Of a stretch of 41,540 nt of DNA, positions 1,532-41,228 are shown piece by piece. The DNA lies in assembly GCA_024279865.1 (NCBI GenBank), contig JAJRRC010000080.1, positions 1 through 41,540 on the forward strand, given 5' to 3'. The position numbers were made by a program, and so were the translations under genes. The DNA is from Planctomycetota bacterium (GTDB lineage Bacteria > Planctomycetota > Phycisphaerae > Phycisphaerales > Phycisphaeraceae). How positions within the stretch are numbered: the first letter of the stretch is position 1; every line of letters begins with the position of its first letter. Under the pieces are notes generated by a model. That model saw nothing but the letters and a program-made list of their open reading frames with translations. It was not told where the DNA came from and ran no database searches.

Positions 1532-1610
1532 CCCCCCCCCCCGGAAGTTGGCCCTTGGTAAACATGACACCCTTGGGGAAACCCCCGGAAGTTGGCCCTT
1601 GGTAAACACA
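1532..1610. repeat. G-rich dispersed repeat, two copies (C-rich on plus strand)
   Basis: Two copies of the reverse complement of AAGGGCCAACTTCCGGGGG lie 44 bp apart between clpP and rsmD, each continuing into TTGGTAAACA. The same leader plus ACTTCCGGGGG is found at 27.99 kb and, slightly changed, at 39.26 kb. No gene is supported here; the overlapping open frames are by-products of the low-complexity sequence. Confidence 0.85.
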
Positions 1611-1721
1611 AAATCCTTGGGAATTTTCTTTTGGGAATTTTTTAAGCCGAATGCTGAGGTCTTCCGAAGCGTCGGATTCTTGTGAGGCAGTGACACCAAT
1701 CCCACAAAGAACTCGCGTGCA

Positions 1722-12538: not shown

Positions 12539-12858
12539 AGCTGTCAGTTATCAGTCTTCAGTCAGATGAAGATAAAAATGGTGGCTTAAGGGGTCTGGGG
12601 GCAATTGTTTATTTTGCGTTCATCCTTGCTATTTCTAATTGGGTGATTCGTTTAAAAAATAGTCGCACGCATACTGCGTGCGCGTCCGGGGGTAAGAAAT
12701 AATGCAAACGCTCTAACAGCATGCGCGGAAATCTTTGCGCACCAAGCCAAGAAAAAACACATCCCCTTAAAATATTCTAAAATTGCGAGATCGCATTTTG
12801 TCTCATGCGAATATTTTTTTGATCTCTTACTGAGAGCTGATAACTGATCACTGATCAC
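12539..12858. repeat. Element bounded by inverted TGATAACTGA-type ends
   Basis: This 372-bp gap before ddl has AGCTGTCAGTTATCAGTC at its left end and AGCTGATAACTGATCACTG at its right end, in inverted orientation. The right end runs directly into the ddl frame. A second element with better preserved ends is at 34803-34946. No gene lies inside, so this looks like a non-autonomous mobile element. Confidence 0.6.
12645..12687 (-). repeat. Palindromic intergenic repeat, copy
   Basis: GCACGCATACTGCGTGC is preceded by GATTCGTTTAAAAAATAG and followed by GCGTC and a G-run. It is nested inside the inverted-end element upstream of ddl and is in minus orientation. ATAATGCAAACGCTCT nearby resembles the family's tail. 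Confidence 0.8.
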
Positions 12859-12903
12859 TTCAAAATCTTAGTCCTTGGCGGTGGGCCGGATCGTGAACGG
12901 CCG

Positions 12904-13796: not shown

Positions 13797-13913
13797 CCCG
13801 CCCCCGGACGCGCCCCCGGGCGCGCACCCGGACGCGCACGCAGTATGCGTGCGGCTGTTTTTCAAACGAATCATTCAAGCAAAGGCGGCAAGTATTGATG
13901 CAAAATACTCTCG
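13797..13913 (+). repeat. Palindromic intergenic repeat, full-length copy with C-rich lead
   Basis: A C-rich lead (13797-13830) is followed by GACGCGCACGCAGTATGCG and its pairing arm TGCGTGCGGCT, then TTTTTCAAACGAATC and, 25 nt on, TATTGATGCAAAATACTCT at 13892-13911. The same tail follows the hairpins at 20.0 and 41.3 kb, so the full element is about 85 bp. Confidence 0.85.
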
Positions 13914-13966: not shown

Positions 13967-15049
13967 ATGACATCACCTCGCCCGACATCTTTGCGTAACG
14001 GCCAATGGGCTGTCTTGGTTCTACTGGCCATGGGGATTGTGGCTGCATCTTGCGCGGTTCTCTATTGGCATCGAGACAACCCCAACTTCCTGTCACCAAG
14101 TGATTCAGCAACCCCGATCACCCTTGAACAAATTGCAGCCCAATTAGAGCCACTAAGCCAACGGTATGTCCAAGAACACAAAGAAGAAGACTTAACGCAA
14201 CTCATCGAAGGCATCGCCACGTTTCTAAAACAACATGCCACCTATCCCCCCGGTTATGTCCTCATGGGGCAGGTTCTCTTTGAACAGGGTCAAAAAGCAA
14301 AAGCCCTTGCCTACCTCGCAGAAGGCTTGCGACTCAAGCCCGATCAGCCCGAAGTGCTGCTCATGGCAGGAACTTTTGCATTGATGCTTGATAATCCCGC
14401 CAAAGCTCAAACGTATTTCCAACAAGCCATTGATCTAAAACCCACCCACGCTCCATATTATTTACATCTGGGACAGTCCTTGTTCGCTCAACAAAAATGG
14501 GACGCTTCGGCCAAAGCATTTGAACAAGCCGTCCATCTGGACTCGGCCCTGCACGTGGGCTACAACAGCCTCGCAGACATTCACGCCAAGAAAAAAGATT
14601 GGGCCACCGCTCTGCAATGGATCGGCAAAGCCATTGAACAAGTACCACTGGGCAAACGTCCACAACATGTGGTCTATCTACAAAAACAGGCTTCTTTGCT
14701 CCAGAAATCGGGGCAAACCAAACAAGCGCTCATGGTCCTGCAAAAATTGACCGATACCGAGCAAGCCCAAACAAATGTCATGACGCAAATGGCGCAATAC
14801 TGGGCTTCACTGGGCCAACCCCGCCAAGCAGCAATGCTCTACGAAAACTATTTGAAAATCACACCCAAAGTTTCAACCCTCGCAGCCAAAGCAGCTCATT
14901 GGCGAATCGCGGCCGGCGACCTCGCCAAAGCCCAACAACACCTCATGCACCTCAAACTGCTCGATAGCCGCCTGCCCATCATTCAAGAACTAGAACAAGC
15001 TCTGGCCAAGGCTACAAAAAATCCCCCAACGGCCCCGCCAACTCCCTAA
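13967..15049 (+). CDS. Membrane-anchored TPR protein
   Basis: The 360-residue protein has one N-terminal membrane helix (about 13-33, WAVLVLLAMGIVAASCAVLYW) and a periplasmic-facing array of tetratricopeptide repeats from about 85 on. Repeat signatures are visible in PPGYVLMGQVLFEQGQKAKAL, PEVLLMAGTFALMLDNPAKAQ, APYYLHLGQSLFAQQKWDASA and HVGYNSLADIHAKKKDWATAL. TPRs mediate protein-protein contact; the partner is unknown. The last 38 bp overlap the 3' end of the convergent HYExAFE gene. The start is fixed by a -10-like box just upstream. Confidence 0.88.
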   Translation: MTSPRPTSLRNGQWAVLVLLAMGIVAASCAVLYWHRDNPNFLSPSDSATPITLEQIAAQLEPLSQRYVQEHKEEDLTQLIEGIATFLKQHATYPPGYVLMGQVLFEQGQKAKALAYLAEGLRLKPDQPEVLLMAGTFALMLDNPAKAQTYFQQAIDLKPTHAPYYLHLGQSLFAQQKWDASAKAFEQAVHLDSALHVGYNSLADIHAKKKDWATALQWIGKAIEQVPLGKRPQHVVYLQKQASLLQKSGQTKQALMVLQKLTDTEQAQTNVMTQMAQYWASLGQPRQAAMLYENYLKITPKVSTLAAKAAHWRIAAGDLAKAQQHLMHLKLLDSRLPIIQELEQALAKATKNPPTAPPTP

Positions 15050-15689
15050 AAACCTTCGTCGGCAAATGAACCGTCTGCCACTTGGTGCTGCGTACCCGCA
15101 TGTGCTTCTGATAGTCCACCAACCGAATGGCCCGCATCACATACCACCGCTCATGGTATTCAAAAATCTCTTGGAACAACGCGTCCGGCGGCTGAGCTTC
15201 ACACCAGAATAAAAAAACAAACACTGCCTGGAAATTCGAACCAACAAGTGTTTCCCAACGCCTCAAACTATCAACGTCATCAGCCGTCACCCAATTCTGA
15301 AACCCCCCACCCACCCCGCCCCCGGAAGTTCCCCCGGAAGCTTTCCCCTGGGAAGACCCCAAGCCTCTGAAAGTTTTCTCGGATACGTCCCCGGTAATTC
15401 CGGGAGTAATTCCGGGGGCGGGGGTACTTCCGGGGGCGGGGGACTTTAAATGGGGGGTTGATTTTTTAGACGAACGTCGCGGCGAGATTTTACGACCCTT
15501 CACATCCACAAGCAAATTCATGCCCGATTGGGAATGAACCACAAAATCAAAGTTTTTAAGGTCCTTCTGCACCCCCAACGGCTGCAAAGCTCGCTTGGCT
15601 TCATCAACTGCAATGGCGGGAATTTGATTGGCACGCAAATAATATTCAAATGCCTGTTCGTAATGAAACCGTCGTTGGGCCATGCCCAT
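15012..15689 (-). CDS. HYExAFE family protein
   Basis: The 225-residue protein opens with RRFHYEQAFEYYLR, the motif that names the HYExAFE family, which I know mainly from Planctomycetes. Next comes NFDFVVHSQ and LLVDVKGRK (about 46-68), a pattern (D...DxK) that resembles the PD-(D/E)xK nuclease core, so a DNA-related role is possible but unproven. Residues about 70-130 are low-complexity linker coded by G-rich repeats in both orientations (PAPGSTPAPG and GKASGGTSGGG). The C-terminal part resumes with NWVTADDVDSLRRWETLVG and FVFLFWCE. Met1 or Met3 may be the start; TATCAT lies 7 nt before Met3. It overlaps the TPR gene end by 38 bp. Confidence 0.85.
   Translation of the reverse strand: MGMAQRRFHYEQAFEYYLRANQIPAIAVDEAKRALQPLGVQKDLKNFDFVVHSQSGMNLLVDVKGRKISPRRSSKKSTPHLKSPAPGSTPAPGITPGITGDVSEKTFRGLGSSQGKASGGTSGGGVGGGFQNWVTADDVDSLRRWETLVGSNFQAVFVFLFWCEAQPPDALFQEIFEYHERWYVMRAIRLVDYQKHMRVRSTKWQTVHLPTKVFRELAGPLGDFL
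15303..15448. repeat. G-rich repeats inside the HYExAFE gene, both orientations
   Basis: The left part (15303-15342) is C-rich on the plus strand and the right part (15391-15442) G-rich, so the tract is arranged as inverted G-repeats around about 50 bp of unique sequence. All units are in frame, coding for TSGGG in one and APGST in the other orientation. Confidence 0.85.
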
Positions 15690-15720: not shown

Positions 15721-16653
15721 TCAAGGCAAGGGAATATTCGACACCTTAAATGGAACCGTCACCGCAGTCTTGTCTGATTTAAGATGAATTTCCAACGTCG
15801 GCTCAGAAGGCTCACCTCGCAGGGATAAAAACAAGGTAATCGAAGCAAAACTAATTTTTCGCAATTTGCCCATCGCAGGGGACGGCTGACCTAAATTCGT
15901 CAACATCTGCATCTTAACGATCTGCTTGTCGGGGTCGTGAATCAAAATCGGAATCAAAGTAATGTCCTTGTTACTCCTATCAATCAACGGACGAATGGCA
16001 GCCAATTCTTCAGGCAAAATCGGAATCGCCAAAGTCTCGACCGTGGCATCTCGAAGCATTTGAGGGGTCAGGTAGCAGAGCTTGACCTGGCGGTTGACCA
16101 ATTCGTCATCAGCGAGCAACTTGCCGGGCGTGGCAGTGAAATTTTCCAATGAAACCAAACCCACCCCTGCTTCACTGGGCATGGCCAATCGGACGAGACC
16201 CTCAAGGTGCGCGATTTTTTTAGCATGACGGGCTGGGTTTTTTAGCCTCAGGGGCATCCGCATCGGACTGCCCGGATCATCATCACCGAGATTGGGATTT
16301 CGCACCAAGGGCTTATCAATCAGATTCACACCTGTGTCATCAATAACCTGAGTCAGAACGATTTCTTCGACTGCCATGGCATTTTGAGTGGCTGGCCCCC
16401 CAAAGATCAGGTCCACGGTACAACCACTTAGAATCGAAGATCGCTGGGACCGTCGATCTGTCACATTCGCCACGCGAGCGGTGATTGTCAAAGCCATTGG
16501 CTTCTTCGTTGCAGTTGTCACTGGGGGCTGCGTCTCTGGAGCGGGGGCGGTGGTACTTTGGGGGGAACGACTGGAAGCGCTGCCGGGGGCACTTCCGGGG
16601 GCGGGGGGGATTCCGGGGGCGGCAAGGGTTAGCAGGAGAAGGGTCAATAGCAT
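15721..16653 (-). CDS. Exported protein of unknown function
   Basis: The 310-residue protein has a signal peptide (LLTLLLLTLAAPG, about 2-14), then a linker of Ala/Pro/Gly/Ser coded by the G-rich repeat (APGSAPGS), then a beta-rich domain starting near MALTITARVANVTD. The domain reads as a series of strands with no catalytic motif I recognise. The signal peptide suggests export. The gene lies 31 bp upstream of the HYExAFE gene on the minus strand, so the two may be cotranscribed. Confidence 0.7.
   Translation of the reverse strand: MLLTLLLLTLAAPGIPPAPGSAPGSASSRSPQSTTAPAPETQPPVTTATKKPMALTITARVANVTDRRSQRSSILSGCTVDLIFGGPATQNAMAVEEIVLTQVIDDTGVNLIDKPLVRNPNLGDDDPGSPMRMPLRLKNPARHAKKIAHLEGLVRLAMPSEAGVGLVSLENFTATPGKLLADDELVNRQVKLCYLTPQMLRDATVETLAIPILPEELAAIRPLIDRSNKDITLIPILIHDPDKQIVKMQMLTNLGQPSPAMGKLRKISFASITLFLSLRGEPSEPTLEIHLKSDKTAVTVPFKVSNIPLP
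16541..16622. repeat. G-rich repeat in the exported-protein gene
   Basis: GCCGGGGGCACTTCCGGGGG and neighbouring tracts lie just after the signal peptide in the minus-strand gene, coding for APGIPPAPGSAPGS-like sequence. The G-rich strand is the template strand here, opposite to the sigma factor case. Confidence 0.8.
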
Positions 16654-18557: not shown

Positions 18558-19868
18558 ATGACCCATGACCCCAAGCCCTCCGATCCCGATCCCAATCCCA
18601 CCGCGTTATGGCGATGGAGTGTGCGTCTGTTTTTGTTGGTGGCTTTGGGTATCAGCGGTTTTTTACTGCAACATACCTTGGCCGGACAGGGCAGCTTACC
18701 TGGCTGTGGGGCAGATACCGGTTTTGATTGTGACAGCGTGCTCAATAGCCGTTGGTCCACCGTCGCAGGAATTCCGACCAGTGGCATGGCCATGGGTCTT
18801 TACATCATTTTGCTCGGCTCGCTGAACCTCGTCAATCGCCCTGCCAAAACACAAGCGTGGTTTATCTTGGCCACCGGCGCAGTGAGCGTCCTAAGTGTGG
18901 GCCTCTGGTTTGTCGTGGTCCAACTTTGGATCATCAAAGCAATCTGTCCATGGTGCATGGGAGCCCACGCAGCAGGCAGCATCGCGGCAATTTTAATTCT
19001 GCTGGCCAGTTCCCGATGTGCCCGAAACTGGGGCGTGGTTTTGGGCCTCCTCGGCGTGAGCATTTTTATCTGCCTGCAACTGATCATCATTCCACCGACC
19101 CACCGTGTTGAACAACTCACCACCGTGACAACACCCCTGCTCAATGGCGAAGAAAACAATCTCCCAAGCACACCAGACAAACCAACCGGGAGTCTTTCGG
19201 CAGGCGGGACAACCAAAGATTTAAGGCCAAGCCAACAGCCAACTTCCGGGGGAACTTCCGGGGGGGCTTCCGGGGGGAGTGTGAGGTTGATGGGGGGGCG
19301 TGTGGTGATGAGTCCGCACAAGCATCCGATTATGGGTTCGCCTGATGCGCCCCATATTTTACTTTATCTTTTTGACTATACCTGCCCACACTGTCGGGCA
19401 TTGCACAGCCATCTTGAAGAAGCTCTTGTGCGATACAAAGGCCAATTGGCGGTGGTCATTTTGCCCATGCCGCTGAACAGTGATTGCAATCCCACGGTCA
19501 ATCAAACCGAGCCTCGCCATCGTGACGCGTGCAGTTTTGCGATTCTCAGCTTGGCGGTTTGGCACATCAACCCATCACAGCACGCGATCTTTGATCGTTG
19601 GATGATTTATACCGATTTTGCAACAATTACGCCTGACACCGCTCGCGCCAAAGCCATTGAACTCGTTGGCAAAGAGGCATTGGACGCGGCGATTGCTTCA
19701 GCATGGGTTCGTGATGAACTCACCCGCAATATCAAGCTCTATCAATTCTCCGGCGGCGGGGTCATCCCCAAGCTCATCGGCAAAAACACGCTCATTGCCG
19801 GCCGACCAGGCTCAGCCCTGGACTTGTTTGAAGTCCTCGAAGAAGAACTCGGACTCCAAGCGAATTAA
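18558..19868 (+). CDS. VKOR-DsbA fusion, disulfide-forming membrane protein
   Basis: This 436-residue protein joins a vitamin K epoxide reductase domain and a thioredoxin-fold DsbA-like domain. The VKOR part (about 15-180) has five membrane segments, the outer Cys pair C50/C58 (FDCDSVLNSRWS) and the quinone-side CPWC at 130-133. The DsbA part (about 245-436) has CPHC at 276-279 and a conserved cis-Pro segment GGGVIPKL. In such fusions electrons pass from substrate Cys to DsbA, to VKOR and to quinone. The linker contains SGGTSGGASGG coded by G-rich repeats. The gene is 3 bp after the GNAT gene. Confidence 0.92.
   Translation: MTHDPKPSDPDPNPTALWRWSVRLFLLVALGISGFLLQHTLAGQGSLPGCGADTGFDCDSVLNSRWSTVAGIPTSGMAMGLYIILLGSLNLVNRPAKTQAWFILATGAVSVLSVGLWFVVVQLWIIKAICPWCMGAHAAGSIAAILILLASSRCARNWGVVLGLLGVSIFICLQLIIIPPTHRVEQLTTVTTPLLNGEENNLPSTPDKPTGSLSAGGTTKDLRPSQQPTSGGTSGGASGGSVRLMGGRVVMSPHKHPIMGSPDAPHILLYLFDYTCPHCRALHSHLEEALVRYKGQLAVVILPMPLNSDCNPTVNQTEPRHRDACSFAILSLAVWHINPSQHAIFDRWMIYTDFATITPDTARAKAIELVGKEALDAAIASAWVRDELTRNIKLYQFSGGGVIPKLIGKNTLIAGRPGSALDLFEVLEEELGLQAN
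19238..19278 (+). repeat. G-rich repeat (12-bp period) in the VKOR-DsbA linker
   Basis: GCCAACTTCCGGGGG starts a tract with CTTCC at 19243, 19255 and 19267, that is a strict 12-bp period, coding TSGG TSGG ASGG. It shares its GCCAACTTCC leader with the noncoding copies near 1.5, 28.0 and 39.3 kb. Confidence 0.9.
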
Positions 19869-24191: not shown

Positions 24192-24213
24192 GACTTCCGG
24201 GGGCTCCGGGGGT
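24192..24213 (+). repeat. Short G-rich repeat upstream of rmuC
   Basis: GACTTCCGGGGGCTCCGGGGG sits 14 bp before the rmuC ATG, between genes. It carries two G-runs 9 bp apart. An imperfect inverted pair TTTGCGAT/ATCGCAAA is found at 24124-24165 before it. Confidence 0.7.
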
Positions 24214-27937: not shown

Positions 27938-28010
27938 ACCCAAAAGCCAACTTCTAGGGGGGGGTTACCAAAAAACTCCAAGCATACCCAAGGGCCAACT
28001 TCCGGGGGGG
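27938..28010 (+). repeat. G-rich repeat, two copies next to the gatB stop
   Basis: A degenerate copy (CCCAAAAGCCAACTTCTAGGG) is followed by AAGGGCCAACTTCCGGGGGGG, whose last G directly abuts the TTA that is the gatB stop codon on the other strand. The leader CCCAAGGGCCAACTTCC matches the copies near 1.5 and 39.3 kb. Confidence 0.9.
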
Positions 28011-29528
28011 TTAGTTTTGGAGCTTTTGTTTGATTAGTTCGGTGACGCGTTTGGGATTGGCTTGTCCTTTGGATAACTGCATGATTTGTCCCATCAGAGC
28101 GCCGATGGCTTTGTCTTTGCCGTTGCGGATGTCTTCGATGGCCTTGGCGCTTTTGGGATTGGCTAAAACTTGATCGACAAATCCTTCTAGAGCGCCGTCA
28201 TCAGAGACTTGAAGCAATTTGTGCTTGTTGGCAAGGTCGGCGGCCGTCTGGTCGGGATGATCACAACAGAGGTTAAATAGATCTGCTGCTGCTGAGGAAC
28301 CAATCTTGTCAGCATCGGACAACGCTGCGATTTCATGGATATGCTTGGCAGTGATTCCTAATTGTTGCAGGGGGCAGCCGGTTTCGTTGGCCCGTTTGGA
28401 GCCGTAGTTGAGCAAAATAGAGACCGCTCGTTGCGGGGCGGTTCCCTCTGCGAGAACTGCTTCAAACATTTGAGTGATGCCTGGTTCAGCGATCAAGGCA
28501 TCAATTTGTCGTGTGTTGAGTCCGAGTTCATCACGATAGCGAACTCGCCGGGCCAGGGGTAACTCGGGCTGTTGGTGACGCAATGCTTCAACGAGTGCGG
28601 GGTCAACGTTCAGTGGCACGAGATCCGGATCGGGAAAATAGCGGTATTCGTCTTCATCTTCTTTGACGCGCTGAAGGGTGGTGACGTTTTTATTGTCATC
28701 CCAACCACGGGTGGACTTGGTGCGAGCGTCCATGACTTGGCCGGTTTTGAGCCACGCTTCGATTTGACGTTCATATTCATAGGCAATGGACCCATGCACA
28801 GCCCGAAAGGAGTTGAGGTTTTTAATTTCCGCGATGGGGGTGCGGTATTCCACGCCCTCTTTTTCGATGATGACGTTGATGTTGGGTTCAAAGCGGATGT
28901 GTCCTTTTTGCATGATGCCTTCGGAGACACCGACATGACGGCAAATATCTCGAAGCACCTGGCCGAACATGACAGCTTGCTGGGGGGTATCAAAGTCCGG
29001 CTCAGTCACAATTTCCAGCAATGGCGTTCCCGCTCGGTTGAGATCGACAATGGAGTGGTCGATTTTTCCGCCACCTGGTGCTTCGTGCATGAGTTTGCCT
29101 GCATCTTCTTCGAGATGGGCTCGAAGGATGCGAATTTTTTTCATGGGTGCGTCAGGTTCATCACTGACAGGGATTTCGATTTCACCCGGTCCACACAGGG
29201 GAAGATCGTACTGGCTGATCTGATAATTCTTAGGCAAATCAGGATAGTAATAACTCTTGCGGTCCCATTTGGTGAAGCTTGCGATTTTGCAGCCCAAGGC
29301 CAAGCCAATTTGGATGGACATGCGAACGGCTTCTTCGTTAATCACGGGCAACGTGCCTGGCATACCGATGACCACGGGATTGAGTAGTGTATTGGGCGAG
29401 GCATCATGGTAATCAGGGTGTGCCACATTGGGGGCCGAGGTGAACATTTTGGTTCGGGTGGAAAGTTCGACATGGATTTCCATGCCGACCATCAGTCGCG
29501 TTTTAAGATTTGGATAAGCAGCAGTCAT
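28011..29528 (-). CDS. gatB: Aspartyl/glutamyl-tRNA amidotransferase subunit B
   Basis: GatB, with GatA and GatC, amidates Glu-tRNA-Gln or Asp-tRNA-Asn. The 505-residue protein has the typical opening MVGMEIHVELSTRTKMF, the SFTKWDRKSYYYPDLPKNYQISQYD block, LEEDAGKLMH and DLNRAGTPLLEIVTEPD, and a C-terminal tRNA-binding tail (KGQANPKRVTELIKQKLQ). This is the full length of the family. gatA and gatC are not in the window. The G-rich repeat directly abuts its stop. Confidence 0.96.
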   Translation of the reverse strand: MTAAYPNLKTRLMVGMEIHVELSTRTKMFTSAPNVAHPDYHDASPNTLLNPVVIGMPGTLPVINEEAVRMSIQIGLALGCKIASFTKWDRKSYYYPDLPKNYQISQYDLPLCGPGEIEIPVSDEPDAPMKKIRILRAHLEEDAGKLMHEAPGGGKIDHSIVDLNRAGTPLLEIVTEPDFDTPQQAVMFGQVLRDICRHVGVSEGIMQKGHIRFEPNINVIIEKEGVEYRTPIAEIKNLNSFRAVHGSIAYEYERQIEAWLKTGQVMDARTKSTRGWDDNKNVTTLQRVKEDEDEYRYFPDPDLVPLNVDPALVEALRHQQPELPLARRVRYRDELGLNTRQIDALIAEPGITQMFEAVLAEGTAPQRAVSILLNYGSKRANETGCPLQQLGITAKHIHEIAALSDADKIGSSAAADLFNLCCDHPDQTAADLANKHKLLQVSDDGALEGFVDQVLANPKSAKAIEDIRNGKDKAIGALMGQIMQLSKGQANPKRVTELIKQKLQN

Positions 29529-29704
29529 GAGTTCGTGGCCCTTTGATCAGGTGAAGCAAAAGATTTTATCGTTTGTGGCGATGAAGGCATAACCGAGAGT
29601 CATTTCCGTGCTTGAAAAAACGTCTTTTTCTTGACAGTTGAACCCTGCGTCGAGACACTAAAGTGGATCATATCCTCTCCGCTCAGTTAGAAGGGACAAC
29701 CTCA

Positions 29705-31384
29705 ATGGCATCGGATGGTTCAGATAAAGTTCGCTGTAAAAGCTGTGACCGCAAATATACTTGGGTTGAAAAATACGCGGGCAAAAAAGTTCGGTGTAAA
29801 TGTGGCGAGGCCATTCGTTTTCCCACTGAACCACCCGTGGCCGAAGTTGAGTCTCTGGAACTGGAATTAAATTTGGATTCGGGGATTGATTTGAATCTCA
29901 ATGACCCACCACCCACAAAGGATCCTGCACCCAATGCAGGCGTGATGGACCTGTCCTTGGATTTGAACCTAGACGAAGGTTCAACCGGGGGAGCCGGGGG
30001 AACCGGGGGAACCGGGGGAGCCGGGGGAGCTGGAGCAGGGGGCGGGGGCGGGAAAACTTCCGGGGGCGGGGATGGGGCGTGTCCCAATTGCGGCGCCCAG
30101 GCGAGGCCGGGGGCTGTTTTGTGCGTGGCATGTGGTTATCACTTTCATGAAGGAACCCAGGCACAAACCCAGCTCGATACCGAAGATGAAGCCAGTGGCG
30201 TCTCTAGCCTCGCTGGAGCAAGCGTTCTAGGCAGCAGCGGGTCGGTTTATGATGGCCCGGTGGATGGGTTTTTCGGCCGCTTTGCTCGCAGTTGGCAATT
30301 CGCCAAGATCAGCTATGGCATGCTGTGGGACTTTAAGCAATTGCTCCTGTTTCCCATTTTCTCTGCCATTGCTGCGACACTGGTATTCTTAAGCTTTTTG
30401 TTACCCATGTGGGGCATGGGCTTGTTGGATATTGATTTGTCTTCCAGCAGTGAACCCGCCATTGCGGTGGTGGTTGAAGAAAACACCCAACCCCAAACCA
30501 GTGTCCAGACAACGCCCGAAATTGACGCCGCCGCCGCTGCAATCGCCAATGCCAAATCCGAAGAAGAAATTCTTGATGCCATGGAACAGATGAAGATCGC
30601 CATGGCAAAAAATGTGGCCGCCCAAGAAGCCGTTGCCAAAGAAAAAGAAGACGTTCAGGCAGCCGTAGTCGAACCTGAGCCTCAAGAAGTCTCAACCGAT
30701 TCCGGCCAAGAGGTTCTACCGTATTTTTTTGCGTTTTACTTTTGTAACTACTTCGTCATTGTCTTTTTCAACACTGCCTTGATTGCTTGTGCGATGAAAG
30801 TGGTGGTGGGCGAAGTGCCGACCATGGGCTATGGCCTCAAGATTGCGATGAAGCGTTTGCCCCAGATTTTGATGTGGGCTTTGTTGTCTGCGGTGGTGGG
30901 TGTGATTCTGAAAGCCATTGAAAATTCGAGTGAAAAACTGGGTTCGATCATTGCCGCCATTCTGGGATCTGGCTGGACGGTGCTGACGTATTTTGTCGTG
31001 CCTGTGATTGCAGTCGAGGGAACCGGTCCCATGAAGTCGATCAAGCAATCGGTCGCCACGCTCAAGGCAACTTGGGGCGAATCGATCATGGGCAATTTTT
31101 CGATGGGCTTGATGACGTTTATTGTGACGTTGCCGGTGTATTTGGTTTTGGGGGTGGGGTTTTACGTCGCCCTCTCGCTGGGAAGCATGATGTTGTTTGC
31201 GGTAATGGTTACGCTGACGATTTTCAGCCTGGTGGTCATTTCCGCCGCGAGCAGTGCCGCTGACATGGTGTTCAAAGCCTTGCTATACAACTACGCCTCA
31301 GGCAAAGCACTACCCGAGGGCATCGATGCGGACATGTTCGCTGCCGCCTTTACAGCCCCCCGGAAAAAGGGCTGGTTTAAGTAA
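29705..31384 (+). CDS. Zinc-ribbon membrane protein (DUF6159-like)
   Basis: The 559-residue protein has an N-terminal zinc-binding segment VRCKSCDRKYTW and VRCKCGEAIRF, an acidic Leu/Asp linker, a Gly-rich linker coded by 9-bp G-repeats, a second zinc ribbon CPNCGAQARPG...CVACGYHF, and a membrane domain with about six segments from 215 on (QLLLFPIFSAIAATLVFLSF, YFVIVFFNTALIACAM, ILMWALLSAVVGVIL and others). The FARSWQFAKISYGMLWDFKQLLLFP lead-in resembles DUF6159 membrane proteins. The start is ATG 29705, since AAGGG lies 9 nt upstream; GTG 29663 is an alternative. TTGACA at 29631 could be a -35 box. Confidence 0.75.
   Translation: MASDGSDKVRCKSCDRKYTWVEKYAGKKVRCKCGEAIRFPTEPPVAEVESLELELNLDSGIDLNLNDPPPTKDPAPNAGVMDLSLDLNLDEGSTGGAGGTGGTGGAGGAGAGGGGGKTSGGGDGACPNCGAQARPGAVLCVACGYHFHEGTQAQTQLDTEDEASGVSSLAGASVLGSSGSVYDGPVDGFFGRFARSWQFAKISYGMLWDFKQLLLFPIFSAIAATLVFLSFLLPMWGMGLLDIDLSSSSEPAIAVVVEENTQPQTSVQTTPEIDAAAAAIANAKSEEEILDAMEQMKIAMAKNVAAQEAVAKEKEDVQAAVVEPEPQEVSTDSGQEVLPYFFAFYFCNYFVIVFFNTALIACAMKVVVGEVPTMGYGLKIAMKRLPQILMWALLSAVVGVILKAIENSSEKLGSIIAAILGSGWTVLTYFVVPVIAVEGTGPMKSIKQSVATLKATWGESIMGNFSMGLMTFIVTLPVYLVLGVGFYVALSLGSMMLFAVMVTLTIFSLVVISAASSAADMVFKALLYNYASGKALPEGIDADMFAAAFTAPRKKGWFK
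29982..30077 (+). repeat. G-rich repeat, 9-bp units in the zinc-ribbon gene
   Basis: CCGGGGG occurs at 29985, 29994, 30003, 30012 and 30021, a strict 9-bp period of (A/G)CCGGGGGA, followed by AAAACTTCCGGGGGCGG. It codes for (GG[AT])n between two zinc-binding segments. Confidence 0.9.
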
Positions 31385-34802: not shown

Positions 34803-34946
34803 TAGTCAGCCATCAGTTATCAGTCAGATTAAGAAAAAAACACTCCATTCAAAGCTGCGTTTTTTGTTTGACGCCAGCCTCTTTTCTTGCTGATGGCTGA
34901 TGACTTAATATAGTATCTTTTCTGACTGATAACTGATAGCTGACAG
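34803..34946. repeat. Small element with 25-bp inverted ends before the M16 gene
   Basis: The left end CATCAGTTATCAGTCAGAT and the right end CTGACTGATAACTGATAG are inverted copies that match at about 24 of 27 positions. The right side continues with further TGATAACT words up to 14 nt before the M16 ATG. The inside has no gene. A similar element lies upstream of ddl. Confidence 0.75.
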
Positions 34947-34960
34947 CTGATAACTTAAAA

Positions 34961-36194: not shown

Positions 36195-36878
36195 ATGCGT
36201 TTTCTTGTCACGGCTGGCCCGACACGTGAACCCATTGATGCGGTTCGGTTTATTTCCAACCGATCCAGCGGGAAAATGGGCTTGGCCATCGCCCAGGCAG
36301 GTCTTGCAGGGGGCCATGAGGTGACGCTATTGCATGGGCCGGGGGTGTTACCGGGGGAATTCGAACAGACGTTTGCGAAATTTCCGGGGGAGCTTCCGGG
36401 GGAACTTCCGGGGGCGGGGGTCCAATGTGCAGGCTTTGAGACGACGCGTCAATTGCATGCGCTATTGGAAAAATATTGGCCTAACCATGATTGTCTGGTC
36501 ATGGCCGCGGCCGTGGCGGATTATCAAATGCCATTGGGAAGTGTTGATGCGTCTTTAAAGAAATTGCCTCGTGGTAAAGGGTTGACTTTAACGCTTGAAC
36601 CGACCGAAGACCTTGTCGCAGCGATGGTGAAAATCAAACGTGCCGATCAGCGGATCGTGGCGTTTGCGTTAGAAGAAGCTAAAAATCTCCAAGGCCGCGC
36701 GTTGAAAAAACTTAAACGCAAAGACGTTGATGCCATCGTCGCCAACCCACTTCAAACCATGAATGCCGATATAATTGAAGCTCTGTGGCTCACCGCCGAT
36801 GGAGGATGCCAATCCTTTGCGTCCCAGAGCAAAGAAGATTTTGCCACGCAATTAATTGCGTGTTGTGAAAAGCTATAA
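36195..36878 (+). CDS. coaB: Phosphopantothenoylcysteine synthetase (stand-alone CoaB)
   Basis: CoaB joins phosphopantothenate and Cys, with CTP, in coenzyme A synthesis. In most bacteria it is fused to CoaC; here only the synthetase half is present. It has MRFLVTAGPTREPIDAVRFISNRSSGKMG, CLVMAAAVADYQMP, LEPTEDLV and IVAFALEEAKNL. Residues about 50-75 are a linker of PGVLPGEFEQTFAKFPGELP type, coded by a G-rich repeat inside a conserved fold. The 227-residue length fits the domain. The M16 gene ends 7 bp upstream. Confidence 0.92.
   Translation: MRFLVTAGPTREPIDAVRFISNRSSGKMGLAIAQAGLAGGHEVTLLHGPGVLPGEFEQTFAKFPGELPGELPGAGVQCAGFETTRQLHALLEKYWPNHDCLVMAAAVADYQMPLGSVDASLKKLPRGKGLTLTLEPTEDLVAAMVKIKRADQRIVAFALEEAKNLQGRALKKLKRKDVDAIVANPLQTMNADIIEALWLTADGGCQSFASQSKEDFATQLIACCEKL
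36338..36421 (+). repeat. G-rich repeat (12-bp period) in coaB
   Basis: TTCCGGGGGAGC and TTCCGGGGGAAC are exact 12-bp units, in a reading frame different from that in the VKOR gene (PGEL instead of TSGG). The left part holds ATTCGAACAGACGT at 36359-36372, which also occurs at 40020-40033 in the beta-helix gene. Confidence 0.9.
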
Positions 36879-38279: not shown

Positions 38280-39041
38280 ATGAATTGTACTGGTCTGACC
38301 TCAAGGGGCAAACGGCAATTGAAGCATGCCACGCTACCATCTGAACATCCATTAAACCAAACGCCCGCCTGCTTATTCAAAGCAGACGACCGAAGCCGGG
38401 TGTGGCTTGCGCATCGCTCAGACGGATCAGCGTGTGTGGTGAAGCTTTTTGTGTTTTCCCGCTGGCGTCAGCGACTGCTCAGTTGGCTTGGGCATCACCC
38501 CGGCCACAACGAAAAAATTCGCCACGCTCAACTTTACAAGCAAGGCATTGCAGCCATTCAAATCAATGAAACCGGACAAGCCCACGGCGAACATTGGCTC
38601 ATCACCCCCTATCGCGGCCTCTCTTTACACAACTGGCTCAAAACCCAAGCAGCCCACGCCCATCAACCCGTCCGCCGGGACTTGGCCTTTGAGTTTGGCG
38701 CGTTAACAGGCCAACTGTTAAACAAGCGTTATTTTTTTCGGGATCACAAAGTCAGCAACATGATTGTCGATGACGAGCATCAGCTTTGGCTCATCGATGC
38801 AGGAACCGTCCGACGCACTTGGGGGCGAGGACTTAACCGCGGTGCGGTGCGGATGATTCGCCAGGCCCACGAGACCGCCATCAAAGCATTTCAAAGTTGT
38901 GAAGACCCCTCACCCACGAGCCTCACACGCACGGATCAATTGCGATTTATCCGTGGCTTGCAACACGCATGGCCCACCTGTCCACCGGCCGTGCTGCGCG
39001 AGGTTGGATTTGAGCTGTCTACAAAATCACAGACAACGTAA
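38280..39041 (+). CDS. WaaP-like sugar kinase (lipopolysaccharide kinase family)
   Basis: The 253-residue protein has a kinase-like fold of the Kdo/WaaP family. An ATP-binding Lys is in SACVVKLFVFS, the catalytic loop is YFFRDHKVSNMIVDDEHQLW (HK-N) and the metal site is LIDAGTVRR. Next to a GT4 gene it likely phosphorylates a sugar of an outer-membrane glycolipid. The start is uncertain: ATG 38220 shares its CATG with the divergent GT4 start, so ATG 38280 is chosen; there is no clear Shine-Dalgarno at either. Confidence 0.75.
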   Translation: MNCTGLTSRGKRQLKHATLPSEHPLNQTPACLFKADDRSRVWLAHRSDGSACVVKLFVFSRWRQRLLSWLGHHPGHNEKIRHAQLYKQGIAAIQINETGQAHGEHWLITPYRGLSLHNWLKTQAAHAHQPVRRDLAFEFGALTGQLLNKRYFFRDHKVSNMIVDDEHQLWLIDAGTVRRTWGRGLNRGAVRMIRQAHETAIKAFQSCEDPSPTSLTRTDQLRFIRGLQHAWPTCPPAVLREVGFELSTKSQTT

Positions 39042-39059: not shown

Positions 39060-39199
39060 GTCGAACTCTAAGGTCCCCCGGGGCCGCAGAGTCGGACTCC
39101 CCTTGGTTTACAAGATTATCCTTCTCGAGCGTGATGAATTCATCGGTCGCATTTATAAAGAACCCGACTCTTCGGCCCCGGGGGACCTCAGAATTCGGC
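39060..39199. repeat. 140-bp element with 36-bp imperfect inverted ends
   Basis: The arms 39060-39095 and 39164-39199 match at 32 of 36 positions when inverted. Both contain a GGTCCCCCGGGGCCG-like core. The 68-bp centre is AT-richer and contains no gene. It could fold into a very stable cruciform or RNA hairpin, or be a miniature mobile element. It is the first half of the 345-bp gap before the LamG/beta-helix gene. Confidence 0.85.
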
Positions 39200-39273
39200 T
39201 TTGTTAAACCGCGTGCGCGTCTGCTAAAAACTTCTCAGAAACGACCCCAAGTGCAAGGTATACCCAAAGACCA

Positions 39274-39372
39274 ACTTCCGGGGGACTTCCGGGGGACTTC
39301 CGGGGGACTTCCGGGGGGCTTCCGGGGGGCTTCCGGGGGGCTTCCGGGGGGCTTCCGGGGGGCTTCCGGGGG
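39274..39372 (+). repeat. Tandem array of nine 11-bp G-rich units
   Basis: Four ACTTCCGGGGG and five GCTTCCGGGGG units follow each other without any change in length, 99 bp in all. The leader TACCCAAAGACCAACTTCC before it matches the copies near 28.0 kb. Runs of five G separated by six bases satisfy the usual G-quadruplex pattern. It ends about 39 bp before the LamG/beta-helix start. Confidence 0.97.
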
Positions 39373-39393
39373 GACTTTTAGCTTGCTTGCAGA

Positions 39394-39399
39394 TACAAT
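39394..39399 (+). promoter_or_regulatory. -10-like TACAAT before the LamG/beta-helix gene
   Basis: TACAAT lies 11 nt before ATG 39411 and directly downstream of the G-rich array, so the array may sit at the -35 region or upstream of it. No -35 box is seen. Confidence 0.4.
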
Positions 39400-39410
39400 G
39401 GTTGGTTCTT

Positions 39411-41228
39411 ATGCAACAACACCTTCTTGGCTTGTGGCACTTTGATCAATCCCATCGTCACGTGGCACTCAACGCGGTGGACGGGGGTGAGCCGTTTCAA
39501 ATTTTCGGGGCCATCCATGAACCACGCCGATTCGGATCGGCCCTGGTCTTACGATTGCCCGGTGACCGAGCTTGTGGCCCAGCACCCGGACGACTCATCA
39601 GCGGCAGCGTCTGCTTCTGGGCTCGTACCCAAGGCGGACAAGGCGAAGTTGAATTAATCAACGTTCAAGGCGAACTGCAAATCCTCATCGACTTCAACAA
39701 CAACCGCCAAATCGTAGCGACCCTAGACGACCAAGTTCTCGTCGGCAAAACCTCCATGGACGACAACCGTTGGCAACACCTGGCCATCACGTTCAATCCC
39801 GATGGCATTTGGCTTTATCTGGATGGCAACTGTATTGCAAGCGACGAACAAGCCCATCACGGATTGCCCCGCGGCCTGGCGCAACAAGCCTTCATTTCCA
39901 TCGGCCCCCTCCCCGCCCCCGCCCCCGGAAGTGCCCTCGGTTCCCCTCAAAACGCCTCGCCAAGTATGAAAAATGTTTCAGGGGAAACTGCTGAGGGATA
40001 CGAAAACACCACACCAGGGATTCGAACAGACGTCTCAAAAACTTCCGGGGGGGGGGGGGGGATTGATGAATTGGCGATTTTTAATACCGCGTTGGTGCGT
40101 CCGCAAATCAATGACCTGATGCACGGCGCTCTTGAGCCGACCGACCCACAAATCCAGGTTCCACCGCCTGGGGTCATTGACGCAACGCCTTTGATCAACC
40201 ACCACGATCCAACCTGTGGCATACAAAACGCCATCAATGCCTTGGGACCCACCGGCGGCATCGTACAACTGCCGCCAACGCGACTGATCCTCAGACAAGG
40301 ACTCGTCGTTCCCAGCCACACCACACTCTGCGGAACCGCTCACCATACCATCCTTGCAGCACCCCAACCCGCCGGATGCCCGATCATGCTCAATGTTCGA
40401 GCGGGTAGCGATTGTATCGAAGTTGAAGATGTCAGCTTGTTTGATGTCGGCGATGCCATCCTCATTCGAAGTATCCAACAACAAGGACCTGCCGCCACCA
40501 CTGCCATCATCGAACGAATCGATGGCCGTGCCCTTTGGCTCTCACAAGCATTGCTTCAAAACTATGATGCCAACGCCCCCACATGGGTTTGTCATACCTT
40601 CAACATGATCCAATCTCTAGGCCAACATCATGTGACCATCAGGGACCTGGACATCGAAGGAACCCTCAAAAACCTCGGCGAAATACCCTTTGGCACCGAT
40701 AGCGGCTGTGCAGCCATTGCCATGACCCATTGCCTAGAATCGAGCATTCAAAACTGCCATATCACCGATTGGCTTCACGATGGCATCGCTCTGTTTCATT
40801 GCCAGCGATCCAATGTCTTAAACTGCTCGGCCCGTCATTGCCAAGGACATGGACTGCTGTTGGGCGATGGGTCGATGTACACCCGGTGGAAACACAACAC
40901 GGCCATGCTCAACGGCCGCAGCGGCATGCACGTCCGCAACCACTCTAGGCTCTCCATCATTAGCCAAAATATCCTGTTGCAAAATCAAGCGACCAACCTC
41001 AGTGGCCACAGCATGGACCACCGAATCACCGATAACCTGACCCAAGAAGATTCCACGCCCCCCCCCGGAAGTGCCCCCGGAAGCCCCCCCAGAAATGCCC
41101 CCGAAAATTCCCCCGGCTCCCCCGGCTCCCCCGGTTCCCCCGCACCTTCTCCCACAGCACCTGACCGTGCTGCCGAACAAACCACCTCCGTCTCACAACG
41201 CATGCGCGGCCTTGATGCCTTTGATTAA
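39411..41228 (+). CDS. LamG-like domain plus parallel beta-helix protein
   Basis: The 605-residue protein has an N-terminal concanavalin/LamG-type domain (about 1-215: LLGLWHFDQSHRHVALNAVDGG, WQHLAITFNPDGIWLYLDGNCIAS, IDELAIFNTALVRPQINDLM), then a right-handed parallel beta-helix (about 230-560) like pectate-lyase-fold proteins, with repeated short turns (SSIQNCHITDWLHDGIALFHCQRSNVLNCSARHCQGHGLLLG). No signal peptide is visible. LamG parts often bind carbohydrate. ATG 39411 is favoured over 39387 by the -10-like box. G-rich repeats insert at three places. Confidence 0.85.
   Translation: MQQHLLGLWHFDQSHRHVALNAVDGGEPFQIFGAIHEPRRFGSALVLRLPGDRACGPAPGRLISGSVCFWARTQGGQGEVELINVQGELQILIDFNNNRQIVATLDDQVLVGKTSMDDNRWQHLAITFNPDGIWLYLDGNCIASDEQAHHGLPRGLAQQAFISIGPLPAPAPGSALGSPQNASPSMKNVSGETAEGYENTTPGIRTDVSKTSGGGGGIDELAIFNTALVRPQINDLMHGALEPTDPQIQVPPPGVIDATPLINHHDPTCGIQNAINALGPTGGIVQLPPTRLILRQGLVVPSHTTLCGTAHHTILAAPQPAGCPIMLNVRAGSDCIEVEDVSLFDVGDAILIRSIQQQGPAATTAIIERIDGRALWLSQALLQNYDANAPTWVCHTFNMIQSLGQHHVTIRDLDIEGTLKNLGEIPFGTDSGCAAIAMTHCLESSIQNCHITDWLHDGIALFHCQRSNVLNCSARHCQGHGLLLGDGSMYTRWKHNTAMLNGRSGMHVRNHSRLSIISQNILLQNQATNLSGHSMDHRITDNLTQEDSTPPPGSAPGSPPRNAPENSPGSPGSPGSPAPSPTAPDRAAEQTTSVSQRMRGLDAFD
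39905..39945. repeat. G-rich repeat in the LamG part
   Basis: CCCCGCCCCCGCCCCCGGAA gives a PAPAPGSALGS linker inside the LamG domain, G-rich on the minus strand. It ends near 39945. Confidence 0.8.
40020..40062 (+). repeat. G-rich repeat with ATTCGAACAGACGT flank
   Basis: ATTCGAACAGACGT and then ACTTCC plus a run of 14 G code for DVSKTSGGGGG. The 14-bp flank is identical to the sequence at 36359-36372 in coaB. A run this long is prone to slippage. Confidence 0.85.
41057..41152. repeat. G-rich repeat in the C-terminal tail, 12-bp then 9-bp units
   Basis: CGGAAGTGCCCC-type units repeat every 12 bp four times (two degenerate), then TCCCCCGGC-type units every 9 bp four times, coding PGSAPGS and PGSPGSPGSP. 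The G-rich strand is the template strand. Confidence 0.9.

What the first reader, a model, noticed from the sequence alone, without database searches (positions are those of the whole stretch)
39274..39372. Unit length is 11 bp in the long noncoding array but 12 or 9 bp inside genes
Nine units of exactly 11 bp stand at 39274-39372. In genes the period is 12 bp (19243/19255/19267; two units in coaB; 41068-41104) or 9 bp (29985-30021; 41115-41142). Only 12 and 9 keep the frame. This is what is expected if units are gained freely and selection removes frame-breaking lengths. The short noncoding tract at 24192 has a 9-bp period, so the rule is not absolute.
Basis: seen in the sequence. Interest (0 to 1): 0.75.

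Follow-up and report, generated by a model that had tools for sequence, protein, structure and literature searches.

The report
Frame-filtered G-rich repeats near genes
This uncultured bacterium has a short G-rich DNA word scattered through its genome by the hundreds; inside genes its tandem copies are almost always spaced by multiples of three bases while between genes they are not, the mark of natural selection removing copies that break genes, and the copies also point end-on at the ends of genes in a way we did not find described.

Summary
Nine TTCCGGGGG cores stand 11 bp apart at 39274-39372 in non-coding DNA. The core is dispersed genome-wide (440 copies of ACTTCCGGGGG; 0 of the reversed word). 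In 829 kb of this genome, 45 of 49 multi-unit arrays in genes have only 3n spacings (mostly 12) and none has an 11-bp step; between genes 6 of 25 are 3n and 15 hold an 11-bp step (Fisher p = 5e-9). A second genus repeats it (41/43 vs 16/40, p = 3e-8). The principle is textbook, and 11 bp is a local mode, not a rule.

The less expected part lies around it. Arrays are polar: degenerate units sit on the TTCC side and the longest G-run ends the array. That G end faces gene borders: 18 of 71 intergenic arrays end within 2 bp of a coding region (random mean 1), 17 at a stop codon (TAA-CCCCCCC-GGAAG), none at the other end. This recurs in other genera, one a single 7.4-Mb contig. Closest known are GGGNATC repeats of Xanthomonas and Nostoc, with mirror-image polarity. 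How the word spreads, and why it abuts stops, is open.

The parts
39274..39372 (+). Intergenic array: nine TTCCGGGGG cores at exact 11-bp steps, four AC- then five GC- units; on its TTCC side follows a decayed unit (CCAAAGACCAAC), its G side faces the start region of the LamG-like gene
19242..19278 (+). Three cores, period 12, in frame (TSGGTSGGASGG) in the linker between the VKOR and thioredoxin domains of gene 18558-19868
36382..36414 (+). Three cores, period 12, in frame in coaB (DFP domain) 36195-36878; part of a surface-loop insertion about 15 residues longer than in most of 29 aligned relatives, none of which shows these units at that place
41062..41106 (-). Four units, period 12 (two exact cores, two with one mismatch), in frame near the C-terminus of the LamG/beta-helix gene 39387-41228
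41109..41142 (-). Related 9-bp units (TCCCCCGGC) in the same gene tail, in frame (GSPGSPGSP)
29985..30030 (+). Five CCGGGGGAG units, period 9, in frame (Gly-rich linker) in gene 29663-31384 (DUF6159)
15319..15339 (-). Two cores, period 12, in gene 15012-15689 (minus strand)
15401..15446 (+). Period-18 array in gene 15012-15689 (antisense to the gene)
16584..16622 (+). Period-18 array in the N-terminal part of gene 15721-16653 (antisense to the gene)
24195..24212 (+). Intergenic pair, 9-bp step (TTCCGGGGG-CTCCGGGGG), just upstream of the rmuC-like gene
13799..13837 (-). Intergenic related array, period 12, an exception to the 11-bp statement
1538..1621 (-). Intergenic 44-bp direct repeat; each copy holds one core
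28000..28010 (+). Single core whose G-run directly abuts the gatB stop codon (on the gatB strand TAA-CCCCCCC-GGAAG)

Best explanation
A short G-rich word (TTCCGGGGG plus a spacer of 0-3 bases) is scattered in hundreds of copies and multiplies locally into tandem arrays. New units arise with step lengths of roughly 9-13 bp, probably by slippage or template switching at the G-runs (inferred). Outside genes any step length survives. Inside genes, steps that are not a multiple of three shift the frame and are lost, which leaves 12, 9, 15 and 18 bp, in reading frames that mostly give flexible Ser-Gly-Gly, Pro-Gly or Pro-Glu linkers (the distribution is shown, the selection follows from it). Arrays are polar: the unit with the longest G-run ends the array and degenerate units lie on the TTCC side (shown), so growth is probably at the G end (inferred). 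The array at 39274-39372 is then a largely passive, mutation-driven repeat in DNA where no frame has to be kept. No function is shown.
For: Frame filter: per-step and per-array counts in two genera and for all TRF arrays; 12-bp steps equally dense in coding and non-coding DNA while 11-bp steps vanish from genes. Frames: TTC CGG GGG used by 0 of 80 sense copies in this genome (8 of 116 in G015). G-runs shorter in genes than between genes (mean 5.98 vs 6.66, p = 6e-7; G015 5.40 vs 5.70, p = 3e-4). Insertion into a core enzyme: coaB loop. Polarity: an imperfect unit lies only on the TTCC side of 109 arrays, only on the G side of 32 (p = 5e-11); last G-run 7.5 vs inner 5.4. G4-forming repeats are mutable in E. 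coli (PMC10530614).
Against: Slippage explains local growth but not how one 9-mer reaches hundreds of unlinked places and several genera, nor why arrays abut stop codons. No population data: copy-number change was not observed. Coding status comes from a home-made gene finder. Six of 25 intergenic arrays have only 3n steps; they may be missed genes or real exceptions. Typical units differ in make-up between genes and spacers.
Confidence: 0.75

Rival explanations
1. Functional signal: the C-rich strand right after stop codons (TAA-CCCCCCC-GGAAG) works at the mRNA 3' end, for example as a Rho loading site or as a G-quadruplex roadblock on the template strand, and selection keeps it there; copies elsewhere are by-products.
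For: C orientation after stops 36 vs 5 in own genome and 28 vs 6 in G015; exact abutment 17 against about 1 expected; recurs in 13 of 51 family genomes and in a single-contig genome, where 18 of 20 are true stops.
Against: Only about 4% of genes carry C4 or more right after the stop (27 of 664); most copies lie elsewhere, in genes and in both orientations; no Rfam match around the main array. No expression data.
Confidence: 0.2
2. Telomere-like addition: a template-carrying reverse transcriptase adds the repeats to broken 3' ends, which are then rejoined; the G end marks the junction.
For: The polarity along the G strand and the variable terminal G-run resemble telomere addition; bacterial RTs that make tandem repeats exist (DRT10, PMC12632851, abstract seen).
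Against: No RVT_1 match in the two array-rich genomes G000 (96% complete) and G015 (94%), while several repeat-poor relatives have one.
Confidence: 0.04
3. Different mutation in and outside genes: genes gain 12-bp units because transcription or local sequence favours that length, without selection on the frame.
For: The commonest units differ: G5 plus three spacer bases at 12-bp steps, C-TTCC-G6 at 11-bp steps.
Against: Genes also hold 9, 15, 18 and 24 and avoid the values in between; unrelated arrays follow the same 3n rule.
Confidence: 0.06
4. DNA uptake or other dispersed recognition word (DUS/USS-like), with tandem copies incidental.
For: Hundreds of copies, both strands about equal (229/211), shared in a family.
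Against: Copies are often tandem, polar and variable in G-run length; close opposite-strand pairs are rare; density is four times lower in genes than between them.
Confidence: 0.04
5. Assembly or gene-calling artefact.
For: The genome is a 122-contig draft, and genes were called with a simple script.
Against: The 12-bp pairs are in independent genomes of the order and in none sampled from other orders of the class; the word is in a 7.38-Mb single contig; strict coding calls give the same result (33/37 and 36/36).
Confidence: 0.03

Closest known systems
GGGNATC G-quadruplex heptamer repeats of Xanthomonas and Nostoc (Rehm et al. 2015, PMC4692102)
   Same: G-rich short tandem units spread over the genome, denser between genes than in them, one particular end of the array lying near an ORF whatever the gene's strand, no known mobile element
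   Different: Here the unit step is 9-13 bp not 7, most arrays have 1-3 units with no preference for four, many copies lie inside genes in frame, and the polarity is the mirror image: the 3' (G-run) end faces the ORF, so the G strand is antisense after stops
TAACTGA heptamer direct repeats of Beggiatoaceae, Cyanobacteria, Bacteroidetes (PMC4679880)
   Same: Short intergenic tandem unit, patchy across taxa, no known mechanism of spread, oriented relative to gene ends
   Different: Different sequence, placed mostly just before start codons; a rotation of this heptamer (ACTGATA) is also in this genome, as a separate repeat
Selection against frameshifts in coding tandem repeats (Metzgar et al. 2000 and Lin and Kussell 2012, as cited in PMC1273636 and PMC4692102)
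   Same: Units that are a multiple of three are retained in coding DNA, others depleted
   Different: Described mostly for microsatellites; here one 9-13 bp family in one genome can be compared in both settings
Rickettsia palindromic elements (from memory; mentioned in PMC10969869)
   Same: Dispersed short repeat inserted in frame in protein-coding genes
   Different: Those are much longer palindromes; this is a 9-bp non-palindromic word, often in tandem

Membership tests
Frame-filtered coding tandem repeats | Unit lengths in genes are multiples of three while non-coding arrays of the same genome are not so limited | tested here: met
   45/49 vs 6/25 and 41/43 vs 16/40 arrays; TRF tabulation
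Frame-filtered coding tandem repeats | Copy number varies among individuals or strains | not testable with these tools
   No second genome of the genus came up among the relatives searched and there are no reads
GGGNATC-type G4 repeats | Unit GGGNATC, 7 bp, preferably four units per array | tested here: not met
   Unit TTCCGGGGG plus 0-3 bp; mostly 1-3 units
GGGNATC-type G4 repeats | 5' end of the G-rich array close to the neighbouring ORF | tested here: not met
   The 3' (G-run) end is close: within 2 bp 18 vs 0; compare
GGGNATC-type G4 repeats | Forms a G-quadruplex | tested here: inconclusive
   39280-39373 fits the G3+N1-7 pattern; no biophysics possible
DNA uptake sequence | Dispersed, mostly single copies, often as inverted pairs | tested here: not met
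   Many tandem arrays; five close opposite-strand pairs in 441 kb
DNA uptake sequence | DNA bearing the word is preferentially taken up | not testable with these tools
   Needs cells
REP/RAYT element | Palindromic repeat tied to a Y1 transposase | tested here: not met
   The word is not palindromic; Y1_Tnp numbers do not follow repeat numbers across 41 genomes
RT-made telomere-like repeat | A reverse transcriptase in the genome | tested here: not met
   No RVT_1 match in G000 or G015

The most novel reading that the evidence does not exclude
The word spreads by a so far unknown process that adds new units at the G-run end and is steered to, or halted at, functional borders, above all the base right after a stop codon, giving TAA-CCCCCCC-GGAAG gene ends in several genera of this order.
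Probability: 0.25. Interest if true: 0.75.

Novelty: new variant of a known kind. Interest (0 to 1): 0.5.

Why it matters
One repeat family, amplified in both coding and non-coding DNA of the same genome, gives a clean natural experiment on how selection shapes tandem-repeat step length, and shows a core enzyme such as CoaB carrying a repeat-made loop. The polar arrays that abut stop codons give a sharp, testable clue to how short G-rich words spread in bacterial genomes, a question left open when the GGGNATC and TAACTGA repeats were described.

Tried and rejected
Reverse transcriptase model: no RVT_1 in both array-rich genomes. Loss of a DinG-like G4 helicase as cause: PF13307 is present in rich and poor genomes alike. 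Y1/RAYT transposase: no correlation. Uptake sequence: tandem, polar, few inverted pairs. Array advancing by eating its flank: spacers with an array abutting a stop are not short once the array is subtracted (median 195 bp against 136 bp for all spacers), so insertion next to the stop fits better than replacement. Stop codons created by truncation before a poly-proline run: gatB, whose stop is abutted at 28010, is full length by Pfam (matched to residue 503 of 505). A target preference for TTA in general: the TAA before the C-run is nearly always a real stop (100 or more open codons upstream in 7/7 own, 5/6 G015, 18/20 G168, against 6-14% of all TAA). Plasmid search with the flanking gene found nothing. 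Rfam found nothing at the array. A literature search for repeats in Phycisphaerales or Planctomycetes gave nothing relevant.

Full report
What is there. Nine TTCCGGGGG cores stand at exact 11-bp steps at 39274-39372, between a gene ending at 39041 and a LamG/beta-helix gene starting near 39410. The only long frame open through the array (39131-39445) scores negative for coding and has no Pfam match.

Not chance. The window holds 33 exact cores against 0.49 in shuffles. The whole genome (3.42 Mb, 122 contigs) holds 440 copies of ACTTCCGGGGG, 229 and 211 on the two strands, and none of the reversed word. Relatives in the same family hold from none to 642. Pairs at 12-bp steps occur in 15 of 298 genomes sampled from the class, all 15 in the same order. 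The nearest named relative of a window protein is a Phycisphaerales MAG at 46% identity, so the genome probably belongs to or near that order; the genome itself is unnamed.

Genes were called with a hexamer-based finder in 829 kb of this genome and 590 kb of a second genus, G015. Counting arrays of two or more exact cores: coding 45 of 49 with all steps 3n, non-coding 6 of 25 (p = 5e-9); G015 41 of 43 and 16 of 40 (p = 3e-8); strict coding and 36/36. An 11-bp step occurs in 0 of 49 coding and 15 of 25 non-coding arrays here, and in 1 of 43 and 7 of 40 in G015. Tandem Repeats Finder over all arrays gives the same contrast for the CCGGGG family and for unrelated repeats. Twelve-bp steps have about the same density in coding and non-coding DNA (59 in 717 kb, 10 in 112 kb), but 11-bp steps go from 25 to none (eight of the 25 are the window's own array). 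If coding DNA tolerated 11-bp steps per base as non-coding DNA does, about 160 would be expected; scaled to the number of cores, about 40 (arithmetic).

More signs of the filter. The frame TTC CGG GGG (Phe-Arg-Gly) is used by none of 80 sense copies here and by 8 of 116 in G015. G-runs are shorter in genes in both genomes, as expected if long homopolymers are costly there. In coaB the units are part of a loop about 15 residues longer than in most of 29 aligned relatives; three relatives have long loops of unrelated sequence. The principle is not new: depletion of frame-breaking repeat units in coding DNA is long established (PMC1273636 citing Metzgar 2000).

Beyond the finding. An imperfect unit lies only on the TTCC side of 109 arrays and only on the G side of 32 (p = 5e-11), and the last G-run is longer than inner ones (7.5 vs 5.4). 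So arrays seem to have an old and a new end. In 71 intergenic arrays of this genome the G end lies within 2 bp of a coding border 18 times, the other end never; random placement gives 1.05 on average and 6 at most in 5000 trials. Seventeen of the 18 are stop codons, read on the gene strand as TAA-CCCCCCC-GGAAG. G015 gives 7 against 1.2, equal to the highest of 5000 trials. The motif TAACCCCC..CCGGAAG is found in 13 of 51 genomes of the family. In G168, a 7.38-Mb single contig, 18 of 20 such TAA follow at least 100 open codons, several of them in what look like paralogous genes. Before starts, cores within 40 bp point the same way as the gene in this genome (12 vs 0) but not in G015 (7 vs 8), so that half of the rule is not general.

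How it may work. Shown: dispersal, the 3n contrast, polarity of unit quality, stop abutment. Inferred: growth by slippage or template switching at G-runs, at the G end; selection as the cause of the 3n contrast. Not explained: the spread of one word over the genome, and the exact abutment to stops. Intergenic spacers with abutting arrays are not short, so insertion next to the stop is likelier than replacement of flanking DNA. gatB shows a full-length protein with an abutting core, so truncation is not a general cause. A reverse transcriptase, a Y1 transposase and loss of a DinG-like helicase were tested as causes and found wanting.

Comparison. Closest are the GGGNATC repeats of Xanthomonas and Nostoc, whose arrays lie nearer to the ORF on their 5' side whatever the ORF's orientation (PMC4692102); here it is the 3' side. 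The TAACTGA heptamer of other phyla (PMC4679880) is also present in this genome as ACTGATA arrays. This is therefore rated a new variant of a known kind of G-rich dispersed tandem repeat, with a known selection rule acting on it.

Noticed in passing
window 12829-12859 and 34925-34955: ACTGATA heptamer arrays, a rotation of the TAACTGA repeat known from Beggiatoaceae, Cyanobacteria and Bacteroidetes; all period-7 arrays found in the sample of this genome lie outside genes. In a control scan 13 of 87 intergenic CTGATA places end within 10 bp of a gene on one side and 2 on the other.
   Followed up: partly
window 40047-40061: Run of 15 G directly after TTCC inside the LamG/beta-helix gene; a likely frameshift hot spot (possible phase variation) or a place of assembly doubt.
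   Followed up: no
window 39068-39195: Long inverted repeat (AAGGTCCCCCGGGGCCGCAGAGTCGG ... CCGACTCTTCGGCCCCGGGGGACCT) downstream of gene 38435-39041, terminator-like; no Rfam match.
   Followed up: no
window 28000-28013: C-run directly abutting the gatB stop codon (TAA-CCCCCCC-GGAAG), with a second related C-run farther down.
   Followed up: yes
L264, L266, L268 (G168): Three genes that end alike (GAAGCC-TAA-CCCCCG...), each followed by the C-run word; they look like paralogues, so the abutting word may travel with gene duplicates.
   Followed up: no
L222-L241 (G006): A relative with 575 dispersed copies of ACTTCCGGGGG but almost no tandem arrays, so dispersal and tandem growth can be separate.
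   Followed up: partly
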